The notes below the pieces were generated by a model, which saw only the letters and a list, made by a program, of their open reading frames with translations, did not search any database and was not told the origin of the DNA. DNA of 36,486 nt, taken from positions 1 to 36,486 of the forward strand of contig JAKAKE010000117.1 in assembly GCA_021824625.1 (NCBI GenBank), given 5' to 3'. The DNA is from Bacteroidota bacterium. Lineage in GTDB: Bacteria > Bacteroidota > Ignavibacteria > Kapaibacteriales > UBA2268. Within the stretch, counting starts at the first letter, position 1, and the number at the start of each line of letters is the position of its first letter. A program made the position numbers and the translations under genes. Positions 4,073 through 36,088 of this stretch are shown here, in pieces.

Positions 4073-4093
4073 CTATTGATTATTTAACCACAA

Positions 4094-4121
4094 TTATTCA
4101 CTATTCGTTATTCACTATTCG
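4094..4121. repeat. Heptamer tandem repeat
   Basis: A perfect tandem duplication of the 14-mer TTATTCACTATTCG, which reads as four 7-base units. It belongs to the same style of 7-base intergenic repeats seen at many other gene junctions in this window. Confidence 0.65.
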
Positions 4122-4130
4122 TTAAATCAG

Positions 4131-8964: not shown

Positions 8965-8990
8965 TATTTGAATTATCAATTATCAATTAT
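8965..8990 (-). repeat. AATTNNN heptamer array (mutS-speB junction)
   Basis: Read on the minus strand, the junction is AATTGAT-AATTGAT-AATTCAA followed shortly by an ATG in the context AATGAAA. The mutS stop codon TGA lies inside the first unit, so the array begins within the last codons of mutS. Confidence 0.6.
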
Positions 8991-11649
8991 TAATTTTCTT
9001 TCTTGCTTCTTTCTGCATTGCAGACAATGTCTTCAATGCTTCAAGCGGTGATAAGCTATCAATATCAATTTTTAAAATCTGTTCTCTCAGTAAATCATCC
9101 CTGAATTCAAATATAGCAAGTTGGTCGGGAATGTGTCTTGCTTTTTTAACTTCAATCCTCTTTGTATCGGTATTTGTCACCCTGGGAGTAGGCGATGGGG
9201 ATCCATTGCTTGAATTACCACTGCTATCTTCAAGAGACTTCATTATTATGTTTGCTCTGCCTGTTACTTCAATGGGTAATCCGGCCATTTGAGCTACGTG
9301 AATACCGAAGGAGTGGTCGCTTGTTCCGGGCATTACCCTATGTGAGAAAATAATAGTATCACCGGCTTCGACAACTTCCACTTTGTAATTAACAATCCTG
9401 TCATACCTGTTTGCAATATCATTCAATTCGTGATAGTGAGTAGCAAAAAGAGTTCTTGCACCAATCGTATCGTGTATATATTCTGTAATCGCCCATGCAA
9501 TTGATATACCGTCATAAGTGGCTGTGCCTCTGCCGACTTCATCAAGGAGTATCAAACTTTTTGCAGTTGCATTATTCATAATATTCGCCGCTTCCTGCAT
9601 TTCGACAAGGAAAGTGCTTTCACCTGCCGTGATGTTATCCTGCGCTCCGACACGGGTAAATATCCTGTCAACTAATCCTATTTTTGCTTTCTTTGCAGGA
9701 ACAAAACAACCAATCTGAGTCAGTAAAACAATCAATGCCACCTGTCTCAGGTAACAGGATTTTCCAGACATATTCGGCCCTGTTATTATATGAATTTGTT
9801 CATTGCTTGTATCGAGTTTTGTGGAATTTGGATGAAAACTCTCACCGATTTCTAATAATTTCTCAACGACAGGATGCCTGCCTTCAACAATCTCTATGCT
9901 CTCTGAATCATCAATTTCAGGTTCAGAATAATTATTCTCTTTAGATGTCTCAGCAAAGCATTGCAAACAATCAATTATAGAAATTATACCTGCATTATCC
10001 TGTATTTTTTCGGTAAGTAACGAGATTTTATTTCTGAGTTCCTGAAATAAATCCTGTTCATACTTTAATATTTTTTCCTCGGCATTAAGTATTTTTTCTT
10101 CAAACTGTTTTAATTCAGGTGTAGTGTATCTTTCGGCATTAGTTAATGTTTGTTTCCTGTCATAACGTGAAGGAACTTTATCTTTGTGAGCATTTGTGAT
10201 TTCGATGTAATACCCGAAAACAGATGTGTATCCCACCTTCAGTGAAGGAATGCCTGATTCCTGTTTTTCTTTTTCCTGGTAATCGTTCACCCATTTTTTT
10301 GCCGAATTTTTTGCATCAACATAAGAATCAAGGTCAGAAGAATAGCCATGCCTGAAAACATTTCCTGTACCAAGTTGAACAGAAGGTTCATCTACCATTG
10401 ATTTGGAAATCATATCAACAACATCATTTACATCTTCTATCCTGTTAATGAGTGAATTTAAAGGTTGAGAATTAAATGCTCCAAGCTGTATTTTTATGTT
10501 GGGAATTTTGGATAAACTTAATTTAAGGGAGATGACATCTCTCGGATTAGCCCTGCCGGTGCAGATTTTTGAAATCAACCTTTCAATATCACCTATTTCC
10601 TGTAAAGTTTCTATCAGTATTTTTCTTTTATTATCATTATCATAAATAGAACGAACGGCAGTTAGTCTCTTAATAATCTGTTCTCTATTTAATAAGGGCA
10701 TTGTTACCCACTTCTTTAATAACCTGCCTCCCATGGGTGTGCAGGTCTTGTCAATTATTGAAATTAGGCTCCCTTCTTTTGTTCCTTCAAACATGGAAAA
10801 AGTAATTTCGAGATTTCTTTTTGTTGAATAATCCAGAATCATAAATTCAGACGGATTATACACCGATATTTTTTTCAGGTGATTAATCTCGCCATTCTGT
10901 GTTTCTTTTATATAATGAAGTATAGCTCCTGCTGCGGCAATACCGGCTGAATATTCATCAATTCCGAAACCCTTTAGATTTTGTGTCTTGAAATGTCCGA
11001 GCAGAGCCTCTCTTCCAAACTGATTATCAAATATCCACGGTTCTAATTTTGTTAAAGGTGGTTTGATTGACAAGTTATTTAATATTTCAATCAACTCGTT
11101 TTTTTGTTCTTTACTGATTATAATTTCTGATGGAGCAAGCGTTTCAAGAACCTGCACTATCGAATGTGCAGAAAATTCAGATACTATAAATTCACCGGTT
11201 GACACATCGGCACAAGCAATACCTGCAATAAAATTTGTTTTTGAATTATTTAAAACAATCGCACAAACGTAATTATTTTTCTTGGTTTCAAGAAGTTTAT
11301 CATACATCGCAACGCCGGGTGTTACTACTTCGATAACACCACGCCTGACAATACCTCTCGCTTGTTTCGGGTCTTCAAGCTGTTCGCATACTGCTACACG
11401 GTAACCTGCTCTTACTAATTTTGGAAGGTAAGCATCCAGCTGATGATGGGGAAATCCTGCTAAGGGACATTCACCTGCCGCACCATTATGTCTTTTTGTA
11501 AGGGTTATACCACAAACCTTTGATGTAGTAACAGCATCTTCGTTGAATGTTTCAAAGAAATCACCAAGACGGAAAAGCAAAATCGTATCTGGATACTTGC
11601 TTTTCATCTGGCTGTACTGCCTCATCAAAGGTGTCTCTTTTTCTTTCAT
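8983..11649 (-). CDS. mutS: DNA mismatch repair protein MutS
   Basis: An 888-residue MutS of the normal bacterial length. The N-terminal mismatch-recognition motif GDFFETF has the Phe31-x-Glu33 pair that stacks on the mismatch. The ATPase domain has Walker A GPNMSGKS, the signature region (AQDNITAGESTFLVEM), Walker B ILLDEVGRGTATYDG and the TLFATHYHEL switch. The C-terminus carries a Ser/Pro-rich linker (SSGNSSNGSPSPTPR) and then a DQLAIFEFRDD tail that resembles the beta-clamp or dimerisation end. It recognises base mismatches and recruits MutL. It lies 46 bases after valS on the same strand. The presence of an intact mutS argues against a general mutator explanation for the broken small genes elsewhere. 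Confidence 0.97.
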   Translation of the reverse strand: MKEKETPLMRQYSQMKSKYPDTILLFRLGDFFETFNEDAVTTSKVCGITLTKRHNGAAGECPLAGFPHHQLDAYLPKLVRAGYRVAVCEQLEDPKQARGIVRRGVIEVVTPGVAMYDKLLETKKNNYVCAIVLNNSKTNFIAGIACADVSTGEFIVSEFSAHSIVQVLETLAPSEIIISKEQKNELIEILNNLSIKPPLTKLEPWIFDNQFGREALLGHFKTQNLKGFGIDEYSAGIAAAGAILHYIKETQNGEINHLKKISVYNPSEFMILDYSTKRNLEITFSMFEGTKEGSLISIIDKTCTPMGGRLLKKWVTMPLLNREQIIKRLTAVRSIYDNDNKRKILIETLQEIGDIERLISKICTGRANPRDVISLKLSLSKIPNIKIQLGAFNSQPLNSLINRIEDVNDVVDMISKSMVDEPSVQLGTGNVFRHGYSSDLDSYVDAKNSAKKWVNDYQEKEKQESGIPSLKVGYTSVFGYYIEITNAHKDKVPSRYDRKQTLTNAERYTTPELKQFEEKILNAEEKILKYEQDLFQELRNKISLLTEKIQDNAGIISIIDCLQCFAETSKENNYSEPEIDDSESIEIVEGRHPVVEKLLEIGESFHPNSTKLDTSNEQIHIITGPNMSGKSCYLRQVALIVLLTQIGCFVPAKKAKIGLVDRIFTRVGAQDNITAGESTFLVEMQEAANIMNNATAKSLILLDEVGRGTATYDGISIAWAITEYIHDTIGARTLFATHYHELNDIANRYDRIVNYKVEVVEAGDTIIFSHRVMPGTSDHSFGIHVAQMAGLPIEVTGRANIIMKSLEDSSGNSSNGSPSPTPRVTNTDTKRIEVKKARHIPDQLAIFEFRDDLLREQILKIDIDSLSPLEALKTLSAMQKEARKKINN

Positions 11650-16101: not shown

Positions 16102-16139
16102 AGCCCCATTCTTTGCAGTTGAGGAGTGGGGCTTTTTAT
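16102..16139 (+). terminator. Rho-independent terminator after the LysM gene
   Basis: The stem AGCCCCA (16102-16108) pairs with TGGGGCT (16127-16133) around an 18-base loop, followed by TTTTATT. It lies 16 bases before the phoH start codon, so phoH is either expressed by read-through or from a promoter within this short region. Confidence 0.8.
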
Positions 16140-16154
16140 TATTTTTTATATATA

Positions 16155-17132
16155 ATGGATATTCACGAAAAGAAAATTACTTTTGATGATTCCGAAGTCC
16201 TCTCATTATTTTCATATAATGATAGTTTGTTGTCTGTAATTGAAAATAAATTCAATACTGCAATTACTATACGTGGAAACACTCTGTTATTGAGAGGTAA
16301 TCCTTCTGAAATAAGAATTATTGAATCTATATTCAATGAGTTGAAATATATTTATAAGAAGCAAGGCACATTCACCTCTCAGGATATTTCAACAATTGTT
16401 GATTTGCTTGATACAAAGAGAAAAACTACTGAACCTCCAATTAATGGCAATGGTGAAATCATTGTATATCACGGTTATCGTGATGTAATCAAAACGCGGG
16501 GCAAAGTTCAATCTGAATACTATAAAAAAGTACAGGAGAATGACCTTATGTTTGCTATTGGTCCTGCAGGAACAGGAAAAACATTTATTGCAGTTGCAAT
16601 GGCACTTGCTTCGCTGAAAAATAACGAAGTCGGGAAAATTGTTCTTTCAAGGCCTGCTGTCGAGGCAGGTGAGTCACTTGGTTTTTTACCGGGTGATTTG
16701 AATGAAAAGCTCGACCCCTACATAAAACCTTTGACAGATGCATTGTTTTATATGCTTAGCCCTGATAAAATGAAAAGCATGCTCGAAAAAAACATTATTG
16801 AGATTACTCCGTTAGCTTATATGAGGGGCAGAACTTTAAATAATTCTTTTATCATTCTCGATGAAGCCCAGAATGCAACATCAATGCAGATGAAGATGTT
16901 TCTGACGAGAATGAGCTCTAATTCAAAAGCGATTGTTACCGGAGATGTAACACAAATTGATTTGCCTGATAAGAGTAATTCAGGATTAATTGAAGCTAAC
17001 AGATTGCTTAAAAAAATCAAAGGTATAGAATTTGTCTATTTTTCCGATAAAGATATAGTAAGGCACCGCCTTGTAGCCGAGATAGTTAGAGCTTATAATT
17101 CAGAGGATAAGAAAACAAATAAAAGAAATTAA
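16155..17132 (+). CDS. phoH: PhoH-family ATPase
   Basis: A protein of 325 residues from the ATG at 16155; an earlier in-frame start would run through the terminator hairpin. Walker A is GPAGTGKT (136-143) and Walker B is ILDEAQN (234-240), in the order typical of PhoH (PhoH-like phosphate-starvation ATPase, YbeZ type). The N-terminal KH-like segment (FNTAITIRGNTLLLRGNPSE) is also typical. YbeZ proteins are linked to rRNA maturation with YbeY; no ybeY is visible next to it here. After it comes a noncoding gap with small hairpins. Confidence 0.92.
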   Translation: MDIHEKKITFDDSEVLSLFSYNDSLLSVIENKFNTAITIRGNTLLLRGNPSEIRIIESIFNELKYIYKKQGTFTSQDISTIVDLLDTKRKTTEPPINGNGEIIVYHGYRDVIKTRGKVQSEYYKKVQENDLMFAIGPAGTGKTFIAVAMALASLKNNEVGKIVLSRPAVEAGESLGFLPGDLNEKLDPYIKPLTDALFYMLSPDKMKSMLEKNIIEITPLAYMRGRTLNNSFIILDEAQNATSMQMKMFLTRMSSNSKAIVTGDVTQIDLPDKSNSGLIEANRLLKKIKGIEFVYFSDKDIVRHRLVAEIVRAYNSEDKKTNKRN

Positions 17133-17195
17133 TATTTGACAATTGATAATTGATAATTTGAATTTGGTATTTTGAAAGTGTCTAAGGATTTTAAT

Positions 17196-17282
17196 CCCAC
17201 GATTGTGGGTTTAATTCCCCGCAGTTTACTGCGAAAAAATAGAATTTACTAAAATATTTAGATACTCCGAAGTTTGCTTCGG
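17196..17282. repeat. Three consecutive tetraloop hairpins (REP-like)
   Basis: Three perfect small stems, each with a 4-base loop: CCCAC-gatt-GTGGG (17196-17209), CGCAG-ttta-CTGCG (17220-17233) and CCGAAG-tttg-CTTCGG (17267-17282). They stand out by GC content from the AT-rich surroundings. They resemble the REP-type palindromes mobilised by Y1/RAYT transposases, but no such transposase is in the window. Confidence 0.6.
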
Positions 17283-17369
17283 TGCAGTTAATTTTTAAAA
17301 TAGGTGTTTTTGGGATTTATCATGTAATGATAATATATCAGCAGTAGTTCAATAATAACTCCCATTCTT

Positions 17370-17382
17370 ATCCCGTAGGGAT
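17370..17382. repeat. ATCCC-gta-GGGAT palindrome
   Basis: A perfect 5-bp stem with a 3-base loop, followed by TATATACTGATTATATATATG. It has the look of the tccCGTAGGGa repeats that are frequent in Bacteroidota intergenic DNA, and is probably a fourth member of the same repeat cluster. Confidence 0.5.
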
Positions 17383-17524
17383 TATATACTGATTATATAT
17401 ATGAATTTGGAATGGCGAAATATTAAATTAAAAGTCGACTTAAATATTTAGATAATTTGAAAAAATTTCAAGCAAAGATGCAAATGTGTCACAAAATTCG
17501 TAAAGATAATTATTAGTATGGTTA

Positions 17525-18309: not shown

Positions 18310-18969
18310 ATGCTTCAAAATCACAATAATGCATTTAATGAAAGAAGAAGATTATTAATTGAATCCCTGAGAAGAAGGGGAAATTTATCCGAAACCGTTC
18401 TTGATGCCATGATGAAAGTCCCAAGGGAAAAATTTCTTGATTCATCATTTCATTTCAGAGCTTATGAGGATACGGCTTTACCAATAGACGCAAATCAGAC
18501 GATTAGCCAACCCTATACAGTTGCATATATGACAACTCTGTTGGACGTAAAAGAAGGTGATAAAATATTAGAAATCGGTACAGGGAGCGGCTATCAGGCA
18601 TGTATTCTTGCTTTGCTTGGGGCTAAGGTTTTCACTATCGAAAGAATTTCTTCATTAGTTGATAAAGCAAAAAAAGTCTTCCATGAACTCGGATTGAATA
18701 TCAACACCCGAATTGGTGACGGCACTATCGGCTGGAAAGAACATTCGCCTTATCAGGGAATCATTGTTACCGCTGCTGCTCCTGATGTTCCCGATAGTCT
18801 TATGGAACAACTTGCTCTGGGAGGTAAGTTAGTCGTTCCCGTTGGCAGTAAATCTTATCAAAGTATGTATCTCATTGAAAGAAAAACTGAAAATGATTTT
18901 AACAAAAGTTCAACTGACAGCTTTAAATTTGTTCCCTTGATTGGTAAGGAAGGTTGGAAGTTAGGATAA
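18310..18969 (+). CDS. pcm: Protein-L-isoaspartate O-methyltransferase
   Basis: This enzyme of 219 residues methylates abnormal L-isoaspartyl residues with S-adenosylmethionine, starting their repair. The substrate-side motif TISQPYTVAYMT (64-75) and SAM-binding motif I LEIGTGSGYQ (87-96) are both present, as is the C-terminal LIGKEGW. It begins 8 bases after the cdaA stop codon and is therefore co-transcribed. Confidence 0.95.
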   Translation: MLQNHNNAFNERRRLLIESLRRRGNLSETVLDAMMKVPREKFLDSSFHFRAYEDTALPIDANQTISQPYTVAYMTTLLDVKEGDKILEIGTGSGYQACILALLGAKVFTIERISSLVDKAKKVFHELGLNINTRIGDGTIGWKEHSPYQGIIVTAAAPDVPDSLMEQLALGGKLVVPVGSKSYQSMYLIERKTENDFNKSSTDSFKFVPLIGKEGWKLG

Positions 18970-18995
18970 TTACTATTGACTAATTAATAATTACT
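18968..18995 (+). repeat. AATTNNN heptamer array (pcm-miaA junction)
   Basis: Four units in register, AATTACT-ATTGACT-AATTAAT-AATTACT, lead directly into AATGAAA, which carries the miaA start codon. The array begins within the pcm stop codon and fills the whole gap. Confidence 0.7.
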
Positions 18996-18996
18996 A

Positions 18997-19920
18997 ATGA
19001 AAAATGTAATTGTAATATTAGGGCCGACTGCTTCAGGAAAAACTGAGGCTTCAATTGAACTTTCTGAATTGATTGATTGCGAAATCATTTCTGCAGATTC
19101 AAGGCAGATATATCGCAAACTTGATATAGGAACAGCAAAGCCAACAAATGAAGAACAACAAAAAGTAAAGCATCATTTTATTGATATATTAAATCTTGAT
19201 GAATATTATAGTGCCGGAATTTTTGGGGAACAGGCTGATATTCTAATACATGAAATTTTTAGTAAAAATAAAATGCCATTAATTGTTGGCGGTTCAGGTT
19301 TGTATATAAAAGCTTTGTGTGAAGGTTTGTTTGAAGAAGATATTAAATATAATGTAGATGAAGTGAGGGAAAATCTTACAAAAAAATATATTGAACAAGG
19401 GATTGACAGCTTATATAATGAATTAAAATCTATTGATATAGATTCAGCAGAATTATATAAAGATAAAAATCCAAGAAGAATTTTGCGTGCTTTGGAATAT
19501 TATCATGCTACAGGAAATTCATTTTCAAAGGCTCATTTAGAAAAAAAAGAAGAAAAAAAGTTCGAAACCGGTTATTTTGGTATTTATTTTGACAGGGATG
19601 AGTTATACAAAAGGATTAATTTAAGAGCAGAGATGATGTGGGAGTCAGGACTTGAAACTGAAACACAAAAGATTTTGGGTATGGGATATTCTCCTGAATT
19701 GAATTCATTGAATACAGTTGGTTATAAAGAATGTATTGCTTATTTGAACGGTGATATAACAAGAGAAAGGGCTATTGAATTAACAAAGCAAAACACAAGA
19801 AGATATGCAAAAAGACAAATGACCTGGTTCAGAAAAAATAAAGATATAATCTGGCTTGAAGGGGGAAATGGAAGAGCTATTGCAGAAAATATTTTTAATG
19901 GAATGAATTTTCATTCGTAA
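18997..19920 (+). CDS. miaA: tRNA dimethylallyltransferase
   Basis: MiaA, 307 residues, transfers an isopentenyl group to A37 of tRNAs that read UNN codons. The P-loop is GPTASGKT (9-16), the catalytic-site motif ISADSRQIYRKLDIGTAKP follows (31-49), and VGGSGLYIKAL and KQNTRRYAKRQMTWFRK (tRNA-binding region) are in their normal places. The gap to pcm is 27 bases of heptamer repeat. Confidence 0.96.
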   Translation: MKNVIVILGPTASGKTEASIELSELIDCEIISADSRQIYRKLDIGTAKPTNEEQQKVKHHFIDILNLDEYYSAGIFGEQADILIHEIFSKNKMPLIVGGSGLYIKALCEGLFEEDIKYNVDEVRENLTKKYIEQGIDSLYNELKSIDIDSAELYKDKNPRRILRALEYYHATGNSFSKAHLEKKEEKKFETGYFGIYFDRDELYKRINLRAEMMWESGLETETQKILGMGYSPELNSLNTVGYKECIAYLNGDITRERAIELTKQNTRRYAKRQMTWFRKNKDIIWLEGGNGRAIAENIFNGMNFHS

Positions 19921-19943
19921 TTCGTAATTATTTTGGGTTTAGT

Positions 19944-21008
19944 ATGAAACTGAGAATACCAAAAAATGTAAAACTTGTGGGACTTCCGCCTGGTACTGCC
20001 GTATTTCAGGGTGAAAGAAAAATCGAATCCATTCAAATAAAAAAAATCGTATATGATGAGATTTATTACGATGAAGTGCTATGCACCGTTGATGATGTTG
20101 AAAAGGTCGATATAATAGATAAAAAAATAAAATGGATTATAATAAACGGCTTGCACGAAGCCAATACTATTGAGCGTGTCTGCAATACTTTTGGAATAAA
20201 ACAGCTAATAATAGAAGATATACTCGACACCGAACATCAGCCCAAAATTGATTTCTTTAATGATTTTGTGTTTGTAACTCTCAAGATAATAGATTATGGC
20301 TCTTTGACAAAAGGTTCGCATACAGAGCACCTGAGTCTTGTTTTCGGAAAAAATTTCTCTTTGACTTTTCTCGAAAGCAGTGTGCATTATTTTGAAAAGA
20401 TTGAAGATAGAATTATGAATAAGGTTGGTAGAATAGCTAAACTCGGAACGGATTATCTAAACTATTCAATCCTCGATTTTGTCATTGACAACTATTACAT
20501 TTTAATTGACAATCTTGGAAATGAAATTGATAAATTGGAAGATTCAATAGTATCAAATCCCCAAAAAGAACATCTCGGATTAATTCATAAATTCAAAAGC
20601 GAGCTGATTTTCCTGAATAAAAATATAAAACCAATGAGAGATATAATAAGGAGATTAGAATCAGAAAAAAGCCTTATGATTGATAATTCAACTTATGAAT
20701 ACCTGCGGGATTTGTCCGACCATATTTTTCAAATCAATGACACACTTGACTCTTATCGGGATACTTTAACTGTTATGATGGATATTTACATATCAAATCA
20801 GGGCAACAAACTGAATGAAGTGATGAAAGTTCTAACAATCATAGCCACGATTTTTATCCCTTTGACATTTATTGCAGGTGTTTATGGAATGAATTTCCAC
20901 TTTATGCCTGAGTTAGAATGGAATTTTGGCTACTATTTCTCATTAATCCTGATGTTAATTATCGGGCTGGGGATGTTGTTTTATTTTAAAAGAAAAAAAT
21001 GGTTCTAA
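19944..21008 (+). CDS. corA: CorA-family magnesium/cobalt transporter
   Basis: A protein of 354 residues with a long soluble N-terminal domain and helices, then two C-terminal membrane segments. The hallmark GMN motif is at 315-317 (GVYGMNFHFMPELEW), with the first transmembrane helix just before it (LTIIATIFIPLTFIAGVYG) and the second after (YYFSLILMLIIGLGMLFYF), ending in a basic KRKK tail. It forms pentameric Mg2+ channels. It lies 23 bases after miaA. Confidence 0.95.
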   Translation: MKLRIPKNVKLVGLPPGTAVFQGERKIESIQIKKIVYDEIYYDEVLCTVDDVEKVDIIDKKIKWIIINGLHEANTIERVCNTFGIKQLIIEDILDTEHQPKIDFFNDFVFVTLKIIDYGSLTKGSHTEHLSLVFGKNFSLTFLESSVHYFEKIEDRIMNKVGRIAKLGTDYLNYSILDFVIDNYYILIDNLGNEIDKLEDSIVSNPQKEHLGLIHKFKSELIFLNKNIKPMRDIIRRLESEKSLMIDNSTYEYLRDLSDHIFQINDTLDSYRDTLTVMMDIYISNQGNKLNEVMKVLTIIATIFIPLTFIAGVYGMNFHFMPELEWNFGYYFSLILMLIIGLGMLFYFKRKKWF

Positions 21009-21011
21009 ATT

Positions 21012-21039
21012 AATTACGAATTAATAATGACTAATTACT
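21012..21039 (+). repeat. AATTNNN heptamer array (corA-dacB junction)
   Basis: Four units in register, AATTACG-AATTAAT-AATGACT-AATTACT, are followed by AATGAAG, which contains the ATG of the next gene. Confidence 0.7.
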
Positions 21040-21040
21040 A

Positions 21041-22831
21041 ATGAAGGATAAGATTAGATTTAAAATAGTAGATTATATGAGTGAAAATTATTTTTTTAAA
21101 ATTACTGGAATAATCATTGGAATTATTTTCTCATTAAATGTTGCTTATTCAATAGAAATTCAAGCAACAAAAAATCCTATAAAAATCAAATTATCTGATG
21201 AGGATAGTCTTAAAGCAATAAATAAACTTAAATCTGATATTGATAATGTTTTATCGGTCGGATTGTTAAAGAGAACAAATTATGGCGTAGCTGTATATTC
21301 CATATCAAATAAAAAATATTATTATTCCAAAAACAAAGACAAACTGCTTACACCTGCCTCGACAACAAAGCTATTTACTACATTTAATGCATTAAATACA
21401 ATGGGCCCTGATTATAGGATTGAAACCGGTGTTTTTACTGATGGAACAATTAAAGATAGTATTTTGAATGGAAATTTATTTCTTGTAGGCAAGGGTGATG
21501 CACTAATGACAATCACAGACATTGAATACCTTGCCGATGCAATTTATGAGAAAGGAATAAGAAAAATAAATGGGAATATCTATGCTGACGGTACTTTTTA
21601 TGACACCATGACTCAACGGGTGAGTTATAGCGGTGATAAAGACATCGTTGAACCTTTGCAGCCGATTACTGCACTTTGCCTGAATAAAAATACTGCAACT
21701 GTACTCGTACATTCGGGTAGTACCCCCGGGAAATTATTATCAGCACAAGTTATACCGTCTTCGGATGCATTTGTTATTCAGAATAATGCTTTTGTAGCGG
21801 GTTCGAAGAAGGTAACAAAAACGCAAAATGTTAAGACTATAAATCAAAATTCTAAGAAGAAAGTTATAAAAAATAATGTACAAAAGAAAAAACAAGCGAA
21901 ACCTAAAAAGAAATCAAAAAATTCATCTTATAATTATCAATTCTCTGAACAGAGATGGGGTGATGTGCCTCCGGCACCAAGTGCCGTTTCTCGTAGAAAA
22001 CCAAGAATTACCTTTGGAACAAAATTAGATTCTTCAGGAATTCAAAAATTTATAATTAATGGAACTTTGCCTGCAGGTAAGAGCTATTCGTATAAGTTTT
22101 ACATTCAAAATCCCAATTTAGTTGTTGCCGGTTCTTTGAAAGACAGACTTGAATCGGGTGGTATTAAAATAAATGGAAAAACAGGTATTAACACAATACA
22201 AACTGTAAAAAACAAAATAACACAAATTGCCGTGATGAACAGGCCTCTTATGGATTTGGTTTATTTGACTAATAAAAACAGTGATAATTACCTGGCAGAA
22301 ACAATTTTCAAAATGACAGGTGCTTATGCAGGTAATCATTCGAATAATGGAAAAAGTTCACAAGAAAAACTTCAGGAGGCATTGAGGAAATATAATGTTC
22401 CATGCAGCAAGTGTTCATTGAATGACGGTTCCGGATTATCAAGACGAAATGTTGTTACCGTTGACGGAATTTTACATTTGTTTATTGAGTCTCAGAAGTT
22501 GAATTTTGGAGACGAATTAGATTCTTCATTATCAATAGCAGGGATAGACGGCACTCTTGTAAACAGAATGAAAAACACATCGGCTGAAAACAATTTAAGG
22601 GGTAAAACAGGAACACTTCGCAATACATCTGCACTTTCGGGATTTGTACAAACTCAGGATTGTGAATTACTTTCTTTTTCATTTGTATTTAATGGGCCAT
22701 CAGTCGGCTCCTATAAGCAAATTGAAAACAAACTCGGAGAGATTTTAGCAAATTTCAAATATTCTTCAGTTCTTGTAAATGAAAAGATTGTCAAAGAAAA
22801 GGTTATACCTAAAAGAAAAAAACAAAAATAG
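21041..22831 (+). CDS. dacB: D-alanyl-D-alanine carboxypeptidase/endopeptidase, PBP4 (S13) family
   Basis: A periplasmic penicillin-binding protein of 596 residues. The active-site motifs are Ser107-T-T-Lys110 (LLTPASTTKLFT), Ser414-D-Asn416 (NKNSDNYLAE) and Lys522-T-Gly524 (RGKTGTLRN). It trims or cleaves peptidoglycan cross-links. A hydrophobic segment (about 20-37) serves as signal or anchor; a later ATG at 21077 is an alternative start. Two oddities: a lysine-rich insert (256-293, e.g. QNSKKKVIKNNVQKKKQAKP) in the middle domain and a basic tail (PKRKKQK). Both suggest contact with anionic wall or lipids. It is the last gene of the cdaA-pcm-miaA-corA run. Confidence 0.9.
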   Translation: MKDKIRFKIVDYMSENYFFKITGIIIGIIFSLNVAYSIEIQATKNPIKIKLSDEDSLKAINKLKSDIDNVLSVGLLKRTNYGVAVYSISNKKYYYSKNKDKLLTPASTTKLFTTFNALNTMGPDYRIETGVFTDGTIKDSILNGNLFLVGKGDALMTITDIEYLADAIYEKGIRKINGNIYADGTFYDTMTQRVSYSGDKDIVEPLQPITALCLNKNTATVLVHSGSTPGKLLSAQVIPSSDAFVIQNNAFVAGSKKVTKTQNVKTINQNSKKKVIKNNVQKKKQAKPKKKSKNSSYNYQFSEQRWGDVPPAPSAVSRRKPRITFGTKLDSSGIQKFIINGTLPAGKSYSYKFYIQNPNLVVAGSLKDRLESGGIKINGKTGINTIQTVKNKITQIAVMNRPLMDLVYLTNKNSDNYLAETIFKMTGAYAGNHSNNGKSSQEKLQEALRKYNVPCSKCSLNDGSGLSRRNVVTVDGILHLFIESQKLNFGDELDSSLSIAGIDGTLVNRMKNTSAENNLRGKTGTLRNTSALSGFVQTQDCELLSFSFVFNGPSVGSYKQIENKLGEILANFKYSSVLVNEKIVKEKVIPKRKKQK

Positions 22832-22840
22832 ATTTTATTG

Positions 22841-22902
22841 CGGGGCAGACGAGACTCGAACTCGCTGCCTTCCCGATTAGAATCGGGATGCTCAAACCAA
22901 AC
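22841..22902 (-). pseudogene. Degenerate tRNA 3' half with an inserted palindrome
   Basis: Read on the minus strand, the segment ends GCGAGTTCGAGTCTCGTCTG-CCCCG, nearly identical to the T-arm and 3' acceptor strand of the neighbouring tRNA-Asp, and begins GTTTGGTTTGAGC, like its D-arm. The anticodon arm is replaced by TCCCGATT-ct-AATCGGGA (22871-22888), and the 5' acceptor strand is absent. It is therefore not a functional tRNA. It could be a partial duplication or the scar of an element that had integrated in the tRNA 3' end. Confidence 0.6.
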
Positions 22903-22924
22903 AAAAAAGATTTGAATTTATATG

Positions 22925-22999
22925 CGGGGCCGACGAGGCTCGAACTCGCGGCCTCCAGTGTGACAGACTGGCGCTCTAACCAAACTGAGCTACGACCCC
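22925..22999 (-). tRNA. tRNA-Asp (anticodon GTC)
   Basis: The 75-base cloverleaf has acceptor GGGGTCG paired with CGGCCCC and discriminator G. The D-arm is GCTC-AGTTTGGTTA-GAGC, the anticodon arm CCAGT-CTGTCAC-ACTGG (anticodon GTC) and the T-arm GCGAG-TTCGAGC-CTCGT. The 3' CCA is not encoded. Confidence 0.95.
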
Positions 23000-23006
23000 A
23001 AAAATC

Positions 23007-23041
23007 AATTACGAATTAAGATTTATGAATTACGAATTAAA
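23007..23041 (+). repeat. AATTNNN heptamer array between the tRNAs
   Basis: Five units in register: AATTACG-AATTAAG-ATTTATG-AATTACG-AATTAAA. They separate the tRNA-Asp and tRNA-Ala genes. Confidence 0.7.
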
Positions 23042-23085
23042 CTTATTTCAAAATTTATAATTCAAAATTTAAAGAACTCATTATG

Positions 23086-23159
<74 letters not shown>

Positions 23160-23177
23160 TGAAATTTTTCAGGAAAA

Positions 23178-23212
23178 CAAAATTACGAGTTTTTTTTCAA
23201 TTTTTGACAAAA
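23178..23212 (-). promoter_or_regulatory. Promoter for the tRNA-Ala/tRNA-Asp pair
   Basis: On the minus strand TTTTG (23212-23208), a 22-base spacer and TAATTTTG (23185-23178) match the Bacteroidota -33/-7 consensus. Transcription would start about 10 bases before the tRNA-Ala 5' end at 23159. Confidence 0.6.
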
Positions 23213-23229
23213 TAATTGAAAATAATTCT

Positions 23230-25281
23230 TCATTTCTTCATAATTATGAATGGAATTGACTCACTTCCTCCATTAAAGCTGACATAGATATAATAGGTAC
23301 CAATGCTGAGATTTGATATTTTAATTGGATATGAAGCAATACCCATTTCCCTTTCAGGAAAATAGCTTGAATATACTTGTTGACCTATTAAATTGAATAA
23401 TCCAACTTTTATATCTGACTTTGATTTTATTGGTACGATAAGTTCAATTTCATTTCTCGAATCTTCAATTATTGATGGATAAACATAAGCTTCGGCTTTA
23501 TTTTTAGCAAATTCTTCTGTCTGGGATGCAGGTATTCCACATTGAATATGGCTTGAATAAGGCTCTATTGTAAGTAATTCATTCTCATAATATGGCAATC
23601 TTCTACTCTTTTCTATGTCCTCAGCAATGACAAAACATTCTGCAACTTCATTATTAAATCTATTCAAAGGTATATCCGCTGTGAACTGATATTTATATTT
23701 TGTTGGATAAAGTTTGAATTTTTCAAAAAATTGTGAATCGAAAAATTTAACATATAAATCAGAATTAGTAATGTGAGAAGTTGATATGATATAAACCACG
23801 ATTCTTTGAAATTGATTCAATTTATAAGTTGATATAGGCGATATTATTATCCCGGCTTTTTTCATTGCATTGAATATATTTGGTATTCCATAGCCTAATG
23901 AATCATCGGGTATCTGATTATTGGATGCTGTAGAAAGTAGGATAGTCCTTACCTCCCAGGGCTTCAATTCGGGAAATTCTTGCATCAATAATCCAACTGC
24001 TCCTGCAACCAATGGTGCTGCAAATGATGTTCCTCGGGCTTTACCATAAGTAAAAGATTCTGTTGCAGAAGCGGCATACACTTCGACTCCCATTGCTGAT
24101 ACATCAGGTTTCATTTTTCCATCAACTCTGGGACCTCTTGATGTAAAAACTGCCGGTGTTATGCCATCAGGTTCTGCTGCTCCAACAGAGATGACACTAT
24201 CAGCATCCGCAGGTGAAATAATAGTTCTTGGATTTGGTCCGCTGTTTCCTGCGGCAGTAATGCAAACAACACCTCTTTTTACTGCACTATTAACCGCCTG
24301 AGAAACGATTGTTGTTCTTCCGTTCAGTTCATTGTAGGTATAATTTGAATCTGTGGAATCAAACCTGAAATATCCAAGTGATGAACTTGTTACATCAACT
24401 CCAAGCGACTCCATCCATTCCAAACCTGCCGCATAATTATCCTCTTCCAAATGATGTTCACCAAGCAAATTCTCTGTTTTGGCAAGCAGAAAATCAGCAT
24501 TGGGAGCAATACCTATCAAGTTCCCCTGAGAAAATCCGGATACGGTCGAAAATACCCCGGTGCCATGGTGGTCCTGGTCATAAAGGCTATCATTCTCATT
24601 TGCTGTAACGCTGTCATTATTTACAAAATCATATTCGGATACTACCGATGCTTTGGACATTGAAGAATGAGCTTTCCACCTGAAACCTGTATCGAGGAAA
24701 CCTATCAAGACACCATTCCCGTTAATACCAAAGCCGTGGAGTAGAGGTATATTCATAAGTTCTGACTGCCTGTAGGATGGCCCATAATCATAATCATTAC
24801 AATTTTCGTAATACTGAATTTTATTATTGTCGTTCACAAAAATTGATGGAATAATTGTATAATCTGGATAGTCAAGTGTAGTCATCTTATTGCCGGTTGG
24901 CTGAACTTTCTTAACAAAACTGAAATATTTTAAGTTTTCTGATGTTATTGAATCACACAAAACAACAATATAATTTTTCCATCTTAATTTTAGTTTTAAT
25001 TCAACACCCAGAGATATGCAGGAATCAATGTACGGCTTATAAACAGGAGCATCTTCGAAATTTATTATTGAATCCTGTGATGAAACCTTGCTTCTTCTTT
25101 TTAATGCTCTCTCATTGAATAATTTAAGAGTTGAATCATATAAAGAAGAACCTTGTTTAAACTCAATAGGCCCTTTATCTTTAAAAAATATTCTATAAGT
25201 ACCAATTTGAGAATAGAGAGTAAATGTCGATATTATCATTAAAAAAATGAGGTATTTAAAAAATCTATTAGTTTTCATCAA
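23230..25281 (-). CDS. Secreted subtilisin-like serine protease with T9SS sorting domain
   Basis: The protein has 683 residues: a signal peptide (FFKYLIFLMIISTFTLYS), a prodomain-like region to about 150, the S8 catalytic domain and beta domains. The catalytic residues are Asp197 (VLIGFLDTGF), His239 (DQDHHGTGVF), the oxyanion Asn346 (ITAAGNSG) and Ser419 (ARGTSFAAPLVAG). The last 75 or so residues (VYPSIIEDSRNEIELIVPIK ... GLFNLIGQQVYSS ... NLSIGTYYIYVSF ... IMKK) fit the type A T9SS C-terminal sorting domain. The protein is therefore probably exported through T9SS and held at the cell surface or released, where it degrades protein. No T9SS machinery genes are nearby. It ends 70 bases before the tRNA pair. 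Confidence 0.92.
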   Translation of the reverse strand: MMKTNRFFKYLIFLMIISTFTLYSQIGTYRIFFKDKGPIEFKQGSSLYDSTLKLFNERALKRRSKVSSQDSIINFEDAPVYKPYIDSCISLGVELKLKLRWKNYIVVLCDSITSENLKYFSFVKKVQPTGNKMTTLDYPDYTIIPSIFVNDNNKIQYYENCNDYDYGPSYRQSELMNIPLLHGFGINGNGVLIGFLDTGFRWKAHSSMSKASVVSEYDFVNNDSVTANENDSLYDQDHHGTGVFSTVSGFSQGNLIGIAPNADFLLAKTENLLGEHHLEEDNYAAGLEWMESLGVDVTSSSLGYFRFDSTDSNYTYNELNGRTTIVSQAVNSAVKRGVVCITAAGNSGPNPRTIISPADADSVISVGAAEPDGITPAVFTSRGPRVDGKMKPDVSAMGVEVYAASATESFTYGKARGTSFAAPLVAGAVGLLMQEFPELKPWEVRTILLSTASNNQIPDDSLGYGIPNIFNAMKKAGIIISPISTYKLNQFQRIVVYIISTSHITNSDLYVKFFDSQFFEKFKLYPTKYKYQFTADIPLNRFNNEVAECFVIAEDIEKSRRLPYYENELLTIEPYSSHIQCGIPASQTEEFAKNKAEAYVYPSIIEDSRNEIELIVPIKSKSDIKVGLFNLIGQQVYSSYFPEREMGIASYPIKISNLSIGTYYIYVSFNGGSESIPFIIMKK

Positions 25282-25354
25282 ATTTTCAATTCAAAATTCG
25301 GTTTATAAGTCTTGCATTATCCAAAAATCTAATTAAATCGTTAATTTATCGTTA

Positions 25355-25388
25355 TTGAATATATCAAGTATGCAAAATAATAATTTTG
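25355..25388 (+). promoter_or_regulatory. Promoter for the SDR-LOG-thioredoxin-tag run
   Basis: TTG (25355-25357), a 23-base spacer and TAATTTTG (25381-25388) match the Bacteroidota -33/-7 form. Transcription would start about 15 bases before the ATG at 25410. Confidence 0.45.
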
Positions 25389-25409
25389 ATTTATCTGTTA
25401 ACATAAATT

Positions 25410-26129
25410 ATGGGAATTGTTTTAATAACAGGAAGCGGCAGAAGGATTGGAAGGGGCTTGGCAATTCGTTTTGCCGAGAAAGGCTGGGATGTTATTATTC
25501 ATTATAATTCCTCCGAAGAAAAAGCAAAAGAAACTGAGAATTTTATTAAGAGTTATGGAGTAAAAGCAGTTTCAGTAAAAGCAGATATCAGAAATGAGCA
25601 GGAAATTAATGATGCTTTTAAGATAGGTATTAATGAAGTTGGTATGCCTGATGTTTTAGTTAATAACGCTGGTGTTTATCCTCCTCCTGCACATTTAAAA
25701 GATATTTCTGATAGTATGTGGGATGACACATTGAATATTAATCTCAAGGGTGAATATTATTTTGCAAAAGAATTTTCAGAGAGAGCAGATGAAGGAAGGA
25801 TTATAAATTTTTCAAGCCTCGGCGGCATGGAAATATGGAAACAAAGAATTCCATATAATGTTTCAAAGGCAGGTGTGATTCAGCTTACTAAAGCACTTGC
25901 AAAAGAGCTTGCCCCATACTTTTCTGTTAATTGTATCTGTCCGGGAACAATTGAAATTCCCGAAGAACCTCCCATTGAAAACACAAAATTAAATGTTGAT
26001 AAGATACCAATGAAAAGATATGGAAATGTTGACGATATTTTTGATGCAGTATATTTCTTTTCAACCTGTTCAAAATATATCACAGGGCAGATATTATGTG
26101 TTGATGGCGGCTATCATATAGCAAGATGA
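25410..26129 (+). CDS. Short-chain dehydrogenase/reductase (SDR)
   Basis: A classical SDR of 239 residues. The NAD(P)-binding motif is TGSGRRIGRG (7-16), whose Arg pair after the glycine favours NADPH. NNAG is at 85-88, and the catalytic Ser135, Tyr149 and Lys153 lie in INFSSLGG and PYNVSKAG. The C-terminal motif is ITGQILCVDGGY. The ITGSGRRIGRGLA start resembles pteridine reductase (FolM-like) members, but ketoacyl-ACP reductase-type activity cannot be excluded. It heads a run with a LOG-family gene, a thioredoxin-domain protein and tag. Confidence 0.85.
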   Translation: MGIVLITGSGRRIGRGLAIRFAEKGWDVIIHYNSSEEKAKETENFIKSYGVKAVSVKADIRNEQEINDAFKIGINEVGMPDVLVNNAGVYPPPAHLKDISDSMWDDTLNINLKGEYYFAKEFSERADEGRIINFSSLGGMEIWKQRIPYNVSKAGVIQLTKALAKELAPYFSVNCICPGTIEIPEEPPIENTKLNVDKIPMKRYGNVDDIFDAVYFFSTCSKYITGQILCVDGGYHIAR

Positions 26130-26133
26130 GAAT

Positions 26134-26160
26134 AATTAACAATTAATAATTAACAATTAA
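26134..26160 (+). repeat. AATTNNN heptamer array (SDR-LOG junction)
   Basis: The units AATTAAC-AATTAAT-AATTAAC-AATTAAA run up to AATGAAA, which carries the start codon of the LOG-family gene. Confidence 0.7.
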
Positions 26161-26162
26161 AA

Positions 26163-26933
26163 ATGAAAAATAATAAAAGAAATTATGACCGGCAAAACGG
26201 AAGAAAATCCCTAAAAAAGGCATTGAAGGGGTATGATAATTGGGATTTTATTCACAGCAAGGATGGGCGGGTTATAAGACTTCTTGCCGAGTATTTATAT
26301 CCCAAACAGGTACTTGATAAGAATAACATTAAAAAAGGAATAATTTTCTTTGGTTCTGCCAGGGTTAAACCTAACCATAAAAATGGAGAAAATTCCAGTT
26401 ATTTCAACGATGCAAAAAAACTTTCAGGATTATTATCTGAATGGTCAGATACTTTACCAAAGGAAAAAAGATTTCACATTGTTACCGGCGGCGGTCCCGG
26501 TATTATGGAAGCTGCAAATCAAGGCTCTTACGCTGCAGGAGGTAAATCTGTCGGACTTAATATAAGTCTTCCATTCGAGCAAATGCCCAATCAATTTATT
26601 TCAGAAGAATTAAATTTTGAATTCCATTACTTTTTTATGAGAAAGTTCTGGTTCGTTTATCTCGCAAATGCTATGGTTGTGTTCCCGGGTGGATTCGGTA
26701 CTCTTGATGAACTTATGGAGATATTAACCCTAAGACAAACCAGGAAAGTTACAAAACCTTTACCAATACTTCTGTATGCAGAAAATTATTGGAAAAAGCT
26801 TATTAATTTTGATTACCTTATTGAGATGGAAATGATTAACAAAGAAGATGTTAATTTATTTACTTTTGTTAATACTCCTGAACAAGCTTTTGATAAATTG
26901 AAAACTGAGTTGACGAGAATACATAAACTCTAA
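26163..26933 (+). CDS. LOG-family protein (nucleoside-5'-monophosphate phosphoribohydrolase-like)
   Basis: The protein has 256 residues. Its motifs GGGPGIMEAANQGSYAAGG (109-127) and PGGFGTLDE (175-183) define the LOG/TIGR00730 family, whose characterised members cleave cytokinin riboside 5'-monophosphate or AMP-like nucleotides at the N-glycosidic bond; older annotation calls them lysine decarboxylases. The N-terminus has a basic segment of about 50 residues before the Rossmann fold, longer than in the minimal forms. The substrate is not predictable here. Confidence 0.85.
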   Translation: MKNNKRNYDRQNGRKSLKKALKGYDNWDFIHSKDGRVIRLLAEYLYPKQVLDKNNIKKGIIFFGSARVKPNHKNGENSSYFNDAKKLSGLLSEWSDTLPKEKRFHIVTGGGPGIMEAANQGSYAAGGKSVGLNISLPFEQMPNQFISEELNFEFHYFFMRKFWFVYLANAMVVFPGGFGTLDELMEILTLRQTRKVTKPLPILLYAENYWKKLINFDYLIEMEMINKEDVNLFTFVNTPEQAFDKLKTELTRIHKL

Positions 26934-26935
26934 AT

Positions 26936-26963
26936 AATTACTAATTACGAATTAATAATTACT
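26936..26963 (+). repeat. AATTNNN heptamer array (LOG-thioredoxin junction)
   Basis: The units AATTACT-AATTACG-AATTAAT-AATTACT are followed by AATGAAA. Here the ATG within that unit leads only to ATG-AAA-AAA-TTA-TGA and is not the gene start; the real start is 11 bases further on. Confidence 0.7.
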
Positions 26964-26975
26964 AATGAAAAAATT

Positions 26976-30488: not shown

Positions 30489-30528
30489 TGTAGAATTTTC
30501 AATTTACAATTTTCAACTCAACACTTAA
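30481..30528 (+). pseudogene. Truncated toxin-like frame, cut by heptamer repeat
   Basis: The ATG at 30481 overlaps the antitoxin-like gene and begins MYDVEFS, like RelE-type toxins. The frame then runs into the AT-rich heptamer repeat (AATTTAC-AATTTTC-AACTCAA) and stops after 15 residues. The rest of a toxin gene is not visible before dnaE. Confidence 0.4.
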
Positions 30529-30548
30529 CACACAAAACTCAACACTAT
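30500..30548 (+). repeat. Heptamer array after the antitoxin-like gene
   Basis: About seven 7-base units starting AATTTAC-AATTTTC-AACTCAA-CACTTAA-CACACAA-AACTCAA. The array begins where the toxin-like frame loses its sense. Confidence 0.5.
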
Positions 30549-34216: not shown

Positions 34217-34311
34217 AAATTAAAAATTAGAAATTTCAAATTCATTTTAAATTAAAAATTAAAAATTAAAAATTATTGATTGTTGTATAATAAAGGTATT
34301 TAATTTATAAT

Positions 34312-34716: not shown

Positions 34717-36060
34717 ATGGAAGCATTATTTCTTGTTATCGGATTAGTTTTCGGTTTCGTCACTACCTGGTTTATTTTAAATAAGAATAAATCCAAAATC
34801 ATAACTAATAATGAGAAACTGAACCAACAACAAAATGATTTAACTGCTTCCAATAAGTTTCTCGAAGATAAAATCATTGATATTAAATCCTCTCTGAATA
34901 CAGCCGAAACAGAGCTAAAGCAGAAAACCGATGACATTATCGAATTGACGAGACAACTCTCAAAAAAAGATGCTGATTTTATTAATCTTGAAAACCGCCT
35001 GAAAGAAAATAAATCAGAATTAGAACAGATTCAGGAAAAATTCTCTACTGAGTTCAAAAATCTCGCAAATGAAATCCTCGAGGAAAAAACGAAGAAATTC
35101 ACCGAACTGAACAAGACAAATTTAGATGAAATCCTTAAGCCGCTCGGCGACAGAATAAAAGATTTTGAAAAGAAAGTTGATGAGACTTATGATAAGGAAT
35201 CTCAGCAGCGTTATTCACTCAAAATTGAAATCAAGAACCTGATTGAACAAACCCAGATGGTCAGCAAGGAAGCAAGCAACCTGACTAAAGCACTCAAGGG
35301 CGAAGCAAAGACCCAGGGCAATTGGGGTGAAATGATTCTTGAAAGCATTCTCGAAAAATCAGGTCTTGTAAAAAACCGTGAATATTTCGTTCAGCAATCT
35401 TTTGCAAAGGAAGAGGGTGAAAAAGGGAAACTTCAGCCTGATATTGTCGTAACATTGCCCGGTAACAGGAATGTTATCATTGATTCAAAAGTCTCCCTTG
35501 TGGCTTATGACAGGTATTGTTCTTATGATAACAAAGATGAGCAGGACTTAGCTTTGAAGGAACATGTACGTTCAATCAAAAGCCATATTGATAACCTCTC
35601 ATCAAAGAAATATCCCGACATCCAAATTGAAACACTCGATTTCGTTATGATGTTCATACCTGTAGAACCTGCATACCTGCTTGCAATCCAATTCGACACT
35701 TCACTTTGGAATTATGCTTATGATAAGCGAATACTCTTAATCAGTCCGACAAACCTGATTGCAGTTCTGAAAATGGCAGCTAACTTATGGCGTCAGGAAT
35801 ATCAGGGTAGAAATGCTTCCGAAATAGCAAAAAAGAGCGGCGAGCTTTACGATAAATTTGTCGGCTTGATTGAAGATCTTATTGAAGTGGGTAAACGTCT
35901 CGATAGTGCAAAGAATACTTATGAAGAATCTATGAAAAAACTTTATTTAGGAAAAGGTAACTTAGTTAAAAGGGCAGAGGACATAAAAGAACTTGGAGCA
36001 AAAACCACTAAATCAATCCCGCAAATTCTTATTGACAGGGTGAACGAAGATGAGAATTAA
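34717..36060 (+). CDS. rmuC: DNA recombination protein RmuC
   Basis: The 447-residue protein has an N-terminal membrane anchor (FLVIGLVFGFVTTWFIL) and a long coiled coil (about 30-130). The RmuC domain follows (KTQGNWGEMILESILEKSGL, NVIIDSKVSLVAYDRY, VMMFIPVEPAYLLA and LLISPTNLIAVLKMAANLWR), a nuclease-like fold. RmuC limits DNA inversion at short inverted repeats in E. coli, which is of interest in a genome rich in small palindromes. Confidence 0.95.
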   Translation: MEALFLVIGLVFGFVTTWFILNKNKSKIITNNEKLNQQQNDLTASNKFLEDKIIDIKSSLNTAETELKQKTDDIIELTRQLSKKDADFINLENRLKENKSELEQIQEKFSTEFKNLANEILEEKTKKFTELNKTNLDEILKPLGDRIKDFEKKVDETYDKESQQRYSLKIEIKNLIEQTQMVSKEASNLTKALKGEAKTQGNWGEMILESILEKSGLVKNREYFVQQSFAKEEGEKGKLQPDIVVTLPGNRNVIIDSKVSLVAYDRYCSYDNKDEQDLALKEHVRSIKSHIDNLSSKKYPDIQIETLDFVMMFIPVEPAYLLAIQFDTSLWNYAYDKRILLISPTNLIAVLKMAANLWRQEYQGRNASEIAKKSGELYDKFVGLIEDLIEVGKRLDSAKNTYEESMKKLYLGKGNLVKRAEDIKELGAKTTKSIPQILIDRVNEDEN

Positions 36061-36061
36061 T

Positions 36062-36088
36062 AATTCACAATTCACAATTGATAATTAA
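36062..36088 (+). repeat. AATTNNN heptamer array after rmuC
   Basis: The units AATTCAC-AATTCAC-AATTGAT-AATTAAA directly follow the rmuC stop codon, whose own bases form part of a preceding AATTAAT unit. Confidence 0.65.

What the first reader, a model, noticed from the sequence alone, without database searches (positions are those of the whole stretch)
18968..26966. Dispersed AATTNNN heptamer arrays that end in register at AATGAAA
At least ten junctions (8965, 17141, 18968, 21012, 23007, 26134, 26936, 36062 and more loosely 4094, 19914, 30500) are tandem 7-base units, mostly AATT plus AAC, AAT, ACG, ACT, GAT or CAC. At miaA, dacB, the LOG gene and before the thioredoxin gene the next unit in register is AATGAAA or AATGAAG. 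In three cases this is the start codon; in the fourth (26965) it is a dead ATG. The upstream stop codon often lies in the first unit. This recalls heptameric STRRs of cyanobacteria but with a link to start codons that I do not know described. It could come from slippage, from a copying mechanism, or from selection for A/T-rich unstructured leaders.
Basis: seen in the sequence. Interest (0 to 1): 0.7.

Follow-up and report, generated by a model that had tools for sequence, protein, structure and literature searches.

The report
Seven-base repeat arrays behind stop codons
This bacterium carries hundreds of short arrays of seven-base repeats that sit mostly just behind the stop codons of its genes, nearly always reading away from the gene; the apparent link to start codons is a side effect, and the same layout is known from unrelated repeats in Xanthomonas and Nostoc, which suggests a shared but unexplained cause.

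Summary
The arrays are real. In this genome (an Ignavibacteria relative) AATTNNN arrays of four cores occur 337 times against 22 for the reversed control. A motif-free test finds period-7 tracts behind about 16% of stop codons, about 1 in 300 in shuffles, and almost none at periods 5, 6, 8 or 9.

The interpretation changes. The arrays belong to stop codons, not start codons. Density peaks 0-40 nt after the stop, is up to tenfold lower right before starts, and lag-7 signal is absent between divergent genes. Polarity behind stops is strong (28:2 and 38:3 in two species): arrays read 5'->3' away from the gene, and those before starts tend to be reversed.

AATG really is the preferred in-register end, but only about one in ten such ends is a start codon. 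At miaA, relatives without the array have stop and start overlapping as TAATG. The array lies between TAAT and G, which forces the register.

Arrays change by whole units and switch NNN sets between species while AATT stays. RNA folding is weak.

The layout matches that published for G-rich heptamers of Xanthomonas and Nostoc. Since these AT-rich arrays cannot form quadruplexes, quadruplex formation cannot be the general cause. How such arrays spread remains open.

The parts
8971..8995 (-). array AATTAAT-AATTGAT-AATTGAT-AATT overlapping the stop of the minus-strand gene 8983-11649, sense polarity
17141..17158 (+). array AATTGAT-AATTGAT-AATT, 8 nt after the stop of the phoH-like gene (16113-17132)
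18968..19002 (+). pcm-miaA junction: TAATTACT-ATTGACT-AATTAAT-AATTACT-AATGAAA; stop in the first unit, ATG of miaA at the end. G001 and G002 have TAATG (overlapping stop and start) instead: +28 nt here
19913..19929 (+). short array (ATTCGTA)n at the miaA stop; G003 has 14 nt (two units) more
21012..21045 (+). corA-dacB junction: AATTACG-AATTAAT-AATGACT-AATTACT-AATG; same length in G003, one unit shorter in G001
23007..23038 (+). loose array AATTACG...AATTACG-AATTA between tRNA-Asp (22924-22999, -) and tRNA-Ala (23085-23159, -), reading away from the 5' edge of tRNA-Asp
26134..26169 (+). array after the stop of the SDR gene, before the LOG gene (start ATG 26163)
26936..26970 (+). array after the LOG gene stop: AATTACT-AATTACG-AATTAAT-AATTACT-AATGAAA; its ATG is not the start. 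The arrayless G002 reads TAATGAAC after the stop
30494..30511 (+). TTC/TAC-type array, followed at 30516-30546 by another heptamer family (ACTCAAC)
34218..34274 (+). two A-rich AATTNNN arrays in a longer spacer
36055..36086 (+). array AATTAAT-AATTCAC-AATTCAC-AATTGAT-AATT overlapping the stop at 36060
4093..4124 (+). heptamer array of another family (TTATTCA/CTATTCG, i.e. AATAGTG-type on the minus strand)

Best explanation
These are members of a family of short, polar heptamer arrays (short tandemly repeated sequences) that settle at gene edges, above all directly behind stop codons. Shown: exact period 7, post-stop placement, polarity pointing away from the gene, several heptamer families, whole-unit gain and loss, fast turnover, and presence or absence between related species. 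Inferred: new arrays arrive as ready-made short arrays of a few standard heptamers and join resident DNA through the shared letters AAT, then grow or shrink by slippage. Purifying selection removes them from coding sequence and promoters. The AATG end follows from joining at AAT next to a resident TAATGA (overlapping stop and start, or double stop), so the register with ATG is a by-product and not a signal. No regulatory function is needed. What copies the arrays to new gene edges, and why they point outward, is not known.
For: Genome-wide excess 337 against 22. Post-stop period-7 tracts: 56/331 genes here, 81/309 in G003, shuffles 1.2 and 1.4, other periods at most 4; in stretches not chosen for arrays 40/256 post-stop against 6/200 pre-start. 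No lag-7 excess in divergent regions. Polarity 28:2 and 38:3. Heptamer words learned in one species predict the strand in the other, 50:7 and 69:15; pre-start tracts lean to the reverse, 16:5 in G003 and 6:4 in G000. The neighbour on the array's 5' side is nearer, 52:13 and 74:24. Whole-unit differences between species in 5 of 7 anchored comparisons, one of them the 28-nt difference at pcm-miaA, and unit-wise replacement of NNN with the core kept (2/64 against 16/48 differences). Empty sites TAATGA at pcm-miaA (G001, G002) and TAATGAAC at LOG-trx (G002), where the filled alleles end AAT|GA; TAATG follows only 14/407 and 19/352 arrayless stops.
Against: The insertion reading rests on two loci. 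Core conservation at fixed register could also mean selection on AATT. Outward polarity is described but not explained by slippage plus tolerance. Orthologous sites often carry an array of a different family, which simple slippage of an inherited array does not give.
Confidence: 0.55

Rival explanations
1. Arrays are the inverted ends of larger intergenic mobile cassettes (REPIN- or MITE-like), moved by Y1 (IS200/RAYT-type) transposases; solo arrays are remnants.
For: In G003 junctions with a post-stop tract also have a tract at the other end: co-directional 10/32 against 3/73 (p=3e-4), convergent 4/5 against 1/11 (p=0.013), facing inward. Inward-facing pairs outnumber outward-facing ones 8 to 1. 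Y1_Tnp copy number follows array number across 54 genomes of the family, rank correlation 0.71, 0.53 after removing genome size.
Against: Not seen in G000 (1/17 against 1/80). Three of 17 array-rich genomes have no Y1_Tnp (one only 76% complete), and 13 of 37 genomes with few or no arrays have it. Genomes are not independent. No palindrome or target duplication found at arrays. Tandem pairs are commoner than inverted ones.
Confidence: 0.2
2. The arrays are functional 3' or inter-cistron sequences (protein- or ribosome-binding, or unstructured spacers) kept by selection on the AATT core.
For: AATT core changes far less than NNN between species at fixed register (2/64 against 16/48); arrays stay post-stop with one polarity in two species.
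Against: Most arrays are not shared at 82% DNA identity (8 junctions with arrays in both species, 15 in one only, of 78). Families with other cores (AATGYAR, AGTGTTG, AATAGTG) occupy the same place. Patchy in the family, from 0 to hundreds. RNA folding is weak.
Confidence: 0.15
3. Heptamers are synthesised on 3' ends of broken DNA at gene edges (end healing, telomere-like in form), then joined by AAT microhomology.
For: Polarity 5'->3' away from the gene at both stop and start edges is what synthesis on 3' ends would give; paired inward-facing arrays; AAT at the joins.
Against: No enzyme found: RVT_1 reverse transcriptase is absent from array-rich G001, G002 and G010 and Ku from all 54 genomes of the family. 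Inference from geometry only.
Confidence: 0.08
4. Chance periodicity of AT-rich spacers.
For: 34% G+C genome, AATT frequent.
Against: Reversed-pattern control 22 against 337; shuffles and other periods; similarly AT-rich array-free relative G005 shows none, on a small sample.
Confidence: 0.02

Closest known systems
G-rich heptamer repeats GGGAATC (Xanthomonas) and GGGGA(T/C)T (Nostoc), Rehm et al. 2015, PMC4692102
   Same: Period 7; heterogeneous units with fixed and free positions, (GGGANTN)n; four-unit preference; between co-directional genes, rare between divergent ones; within 50 bp of the stop on the sense strand or upstream of a start on the antisense strand; nearer to the 5' neighbour; inward-facing pairs; variable between species
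   Different: Here AT-rich, no G tracts, so no quadruplex; different unit; Ignavibacteria
TAACTGA direct repeats of marine Beggiatoaceae, MacGregor 2015, PMC4679880
   Same: Period 7, patchy across genomes, next to gene edges, sense orientation, whole-unit differences between strains
   Different: One nearly fixed unit; placed upstream of start codons in that study; here behind stops, with a degenerate unit and several families
Cyanobacterial STRRs (heptanucleotide short tandemly repeated repetitive sequences; from own knowledge, and heptanucleotides of Calothrix are mentioned in PMC4692102)
   Same: Dispersed intergenic heptamer arrays
   Different: Different unit; placement not compared here
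REP/REPIN elements with RAYT (Y1) transposases, PMC2817692, PMC3116915
   Same: Short dispersed extragenic repeats near gene ends (own knowledge), sometimes paired inverted
   Different: REPs are palindromic single units of 20-40 bp (PMC3733652), not period-7 arrays; no palindrome here

Membership tests
Heptamer repeats of the Rehm 2015 type | tandem period-7 units with fixed and free positions | tested here: met
Heptamer repeats of the Rehm 2015 type | post-stop sense placement, nearer to the 5' neighbour, few in divergent regions | tested here: met
Heptamer repeats of the Rehm 2015 type | four-unit preference | tested here: inconclusive
   ACG-type arrays in G003 mostly have four units; in the wider G003 set, arrays with 4 or 5 AATT cores number 32 and 27, those with 6 or more only 5; weaker in G000
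Heptamer repeats of the Rehm 2015 type | G tracts able to form quadruplexes | tested here: not met
   units are AATT plus three bases; sequence shows no G tract
Slippage-evolved tandem repeats (STRR/SSR) | whole-unit length changes between related genomes | tested here: met
   5 of 7 anchored differences are multiples of 7
REP/REPIN | palindromic unit | tested here: not met
   weak folding, near shuffles
REP/REPIN | associated Y1 transposase | tested here: inconclusive
   correlation with exceptions
TAACTGA start-codon repeats | most arrays just upstream of start codons | tested here: not met

The most novel reading that the evidence does not exclude
A general, sequence-independent process in unrelated bacteria lays down heptamer arrays of a few units with 5'->3' polarity away from gene edges, perhaps synthesis on 3' ends at breaks or a mobile cassette with heptamer ends. 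The G-rich, TAACTGA and AATTNNN arrays would be products of one mechanism that has no known enzyme.
Probability: 0.15. Interest if true: 0.85.

Novelty: new variant of a known kind. Interest (0 to 1): 0.5.

Why it matters
The placement and polarity published for quadruplex-forming heptamers, and in G003 the four-unit length of ACG-type arrays, also hold for AT-rich heptamers that cannot form quadruplexes. So the quadruplex idea is not a sufficient general explanation, and the common factor must be the period of seven and the way such arrays are made or tolerated. The arrays behind about one stop codon in six give a large natural data set for finding that mechanism. The case also shows how an apparent start-codon signal can arise from insertion between overlapping stop and start codons.

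Tried and rejected
Start-codon phase as the organising rule: close to random genome-wide. Chance or AT-richness: rejected. RNA structure: weak and mostly at shuffle level. Rfam: only two tRNAs in the window. Reverse transcriptase (RVT_1) as generator: absent from three array-rich genomes. Ku end joining: absent from the family. Literature text search for the array strings found nothing. G010 shows long arrays of the same units but no clear post-stop peak in 217 kb. G011 as a negative control failed because my gene caller found no genes there.

Full report
What was checked. The window lies in G000, a 3.58 Mb draft genome in 231 contigs. Its closest named relative in the collections is Ignavibacteria bacterium RIFOXYC2_FULL_35_21, which is G003: its contig C54 is identical to that record over 20,921 bases. 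I worked with 724 kb of G000 and 715 kb of G003, genes called by a simple codon-usage script. Part of the G000 stretches and most G003 stretches came from contigs with array or repeat hits, so densities there are biased upward. The G000 stretches taken in contig order give 40 of 256 post-stop tracts.

Period-7 AATTNNN arrays are present at all stated places. Genome-wide the four-core pattern occurs 337 times, its backward reading 22 times. Genus mates have 187-431; other genera of the family range from 0 to 428, the richest of these with a high control of 151.

The arrays mark stop codons. Lag-7 identity is in excess by 0.067 in the first 20 nt after stops in G000 and 0.110 in G003, falls off beyond 40 nt, and is zero between divergent genes. 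Tracts found without any motif lie behind 56 of 331 stops in G000 and 81 of 309 in G003; shuffles give 1.2 and 1.4, periods 5, 6, 8 and 9 give at most 4. Before starts whose upstream stop is far away they are 8 of 254 and 21 of 254.

They are polar. Behind stops the sense strand carries ACG, ATG, CAC, AAC, ACT and GAT units, 28 arrays to 2 in G000 and 38 to 3 in G003. Heptamer words learned from one species predict the strand in the other, 50:7 and 69:15. Before starts the orientation tends to be reversed (16:5 in G003, 6:4 in G000), so arrays tend to read away from the gene at both edges. The neighbour on the array's 5' side is the nearer one 52:13 and 74:24. Among five AATTACG arrays read from scattered other Bacteroidota genomes, three lie behind a stop and two before a start, all in this outward orientation, by my reading of the sequence.

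The AATG end. AATG is the favoured in-register end (40 and 54 against AATC 7 and 7) and usually reads AATGAA, but most such ends are not start codons. At pcm-miaA the relatives G001 and G002 have TAATG with overlapping stop and start; G000 and G003 have the array between TAAT and G, 28 nt longer in G000. At LOG-trx, G002 has TAATGAAC after the stop and G003 ends its array AATGAAC. TAATG follows only 3-5% of arrayless stops. I infer joining at AAT. Two loci are few.

How they change. Between species, length differences are multiples of seven in 5 of 7 anchored comparisons; the 28-nt difference at pcm-miaA is one of these five. Other sites carry a different heptamer family at the same stop, for example AATTAAC units against AATGYAR units, or TTG, CAC, AAC and TTA units at one stop in four species. 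At fixed register the core differs at 2 of 64 positions and NNN at 16 of 48. This is either selection on AATT or repeated replacement by arrays with the same core; the family switches favour replacement.

Mechanism. Slippage explains the whole-unit steps. Tolerance explains absence from genes and promoters. Neither explains the outward polarity or the spread of the same few units. Inward-facing pairs in G003 and the Y1_Tnp correlation point to a cassette or transposase; the geometry also fits synthesis on 3' ends. Neither is shown.

Comparison with the literature. Rehm et al. 2015 (PMC4692102) describe the same layout for GGGAATC in Xanthomonas and GGGGA(T/C)T in Nostoc: units with fixed and free positions, preference for four units, post-stop sense or pre-start antisense, nearer 5' neighbour, inward-facing pairs. 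They relate the four-unit preference to quadruplexes. AATTNNN cannot form these, yet shows the placement and, in G003, mostly four-unit ACG arrays. MacGregor 2015 (PMC4679880) describes TAACTGA heptamers upstream of start codons, so a start-codon link for heptamers is not new. I file the finding as a new variant of a known kind.

Noticed in passing
L252 (G000:C43, around 21880-21911): An (AATTACG)4 array lies in frame inside an N-terminus: MKNYELRITNYEL is followed by what looks like a signal peptide, so an array seems to have become coding sequence right after ATGAAA.
   Followed up: no
window 22841-22905: A partial tRNA-like 3' half (GCGGGGCAGACGAGACTCGAACTCGC...) stands between dacB and tRNA-Asp; neither ARAGORN nor Rfam calls it, so it may be a decayed tRNA.
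   Followed up: partly
G000 and G003 intergenic regions, e.g. window 17180-17450: Spacers are mosaics of other dispersed repeats: CCCGCAGGG hairpins with TTATATATTC, CCTTCGACAAGCTCAGGGTGACA, and GTGGTTATATA motifs that often follow heptamer arrays.
   Followed up: partly
post-stop sites in G000 and G003: Further heptamer families occupy the same position: AATGTAA/AATGCAA/AATGTAG, AGTGTTG, AATAGTG, AATTCTG, AGTCRTN.
   Followed up: partly
54 genomes of the family: Y1_Tnp (PF01797) copy number correlates with AATTNNN array number also after removing genome size; not corrected for phylogeny.
   Followed up: partly
G010 (L216, L218, L219): A different genus has much longer arrays (15 to 21 units and more) of the same units, partly in 34-bp higher-order repeats.
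   Followed up: no
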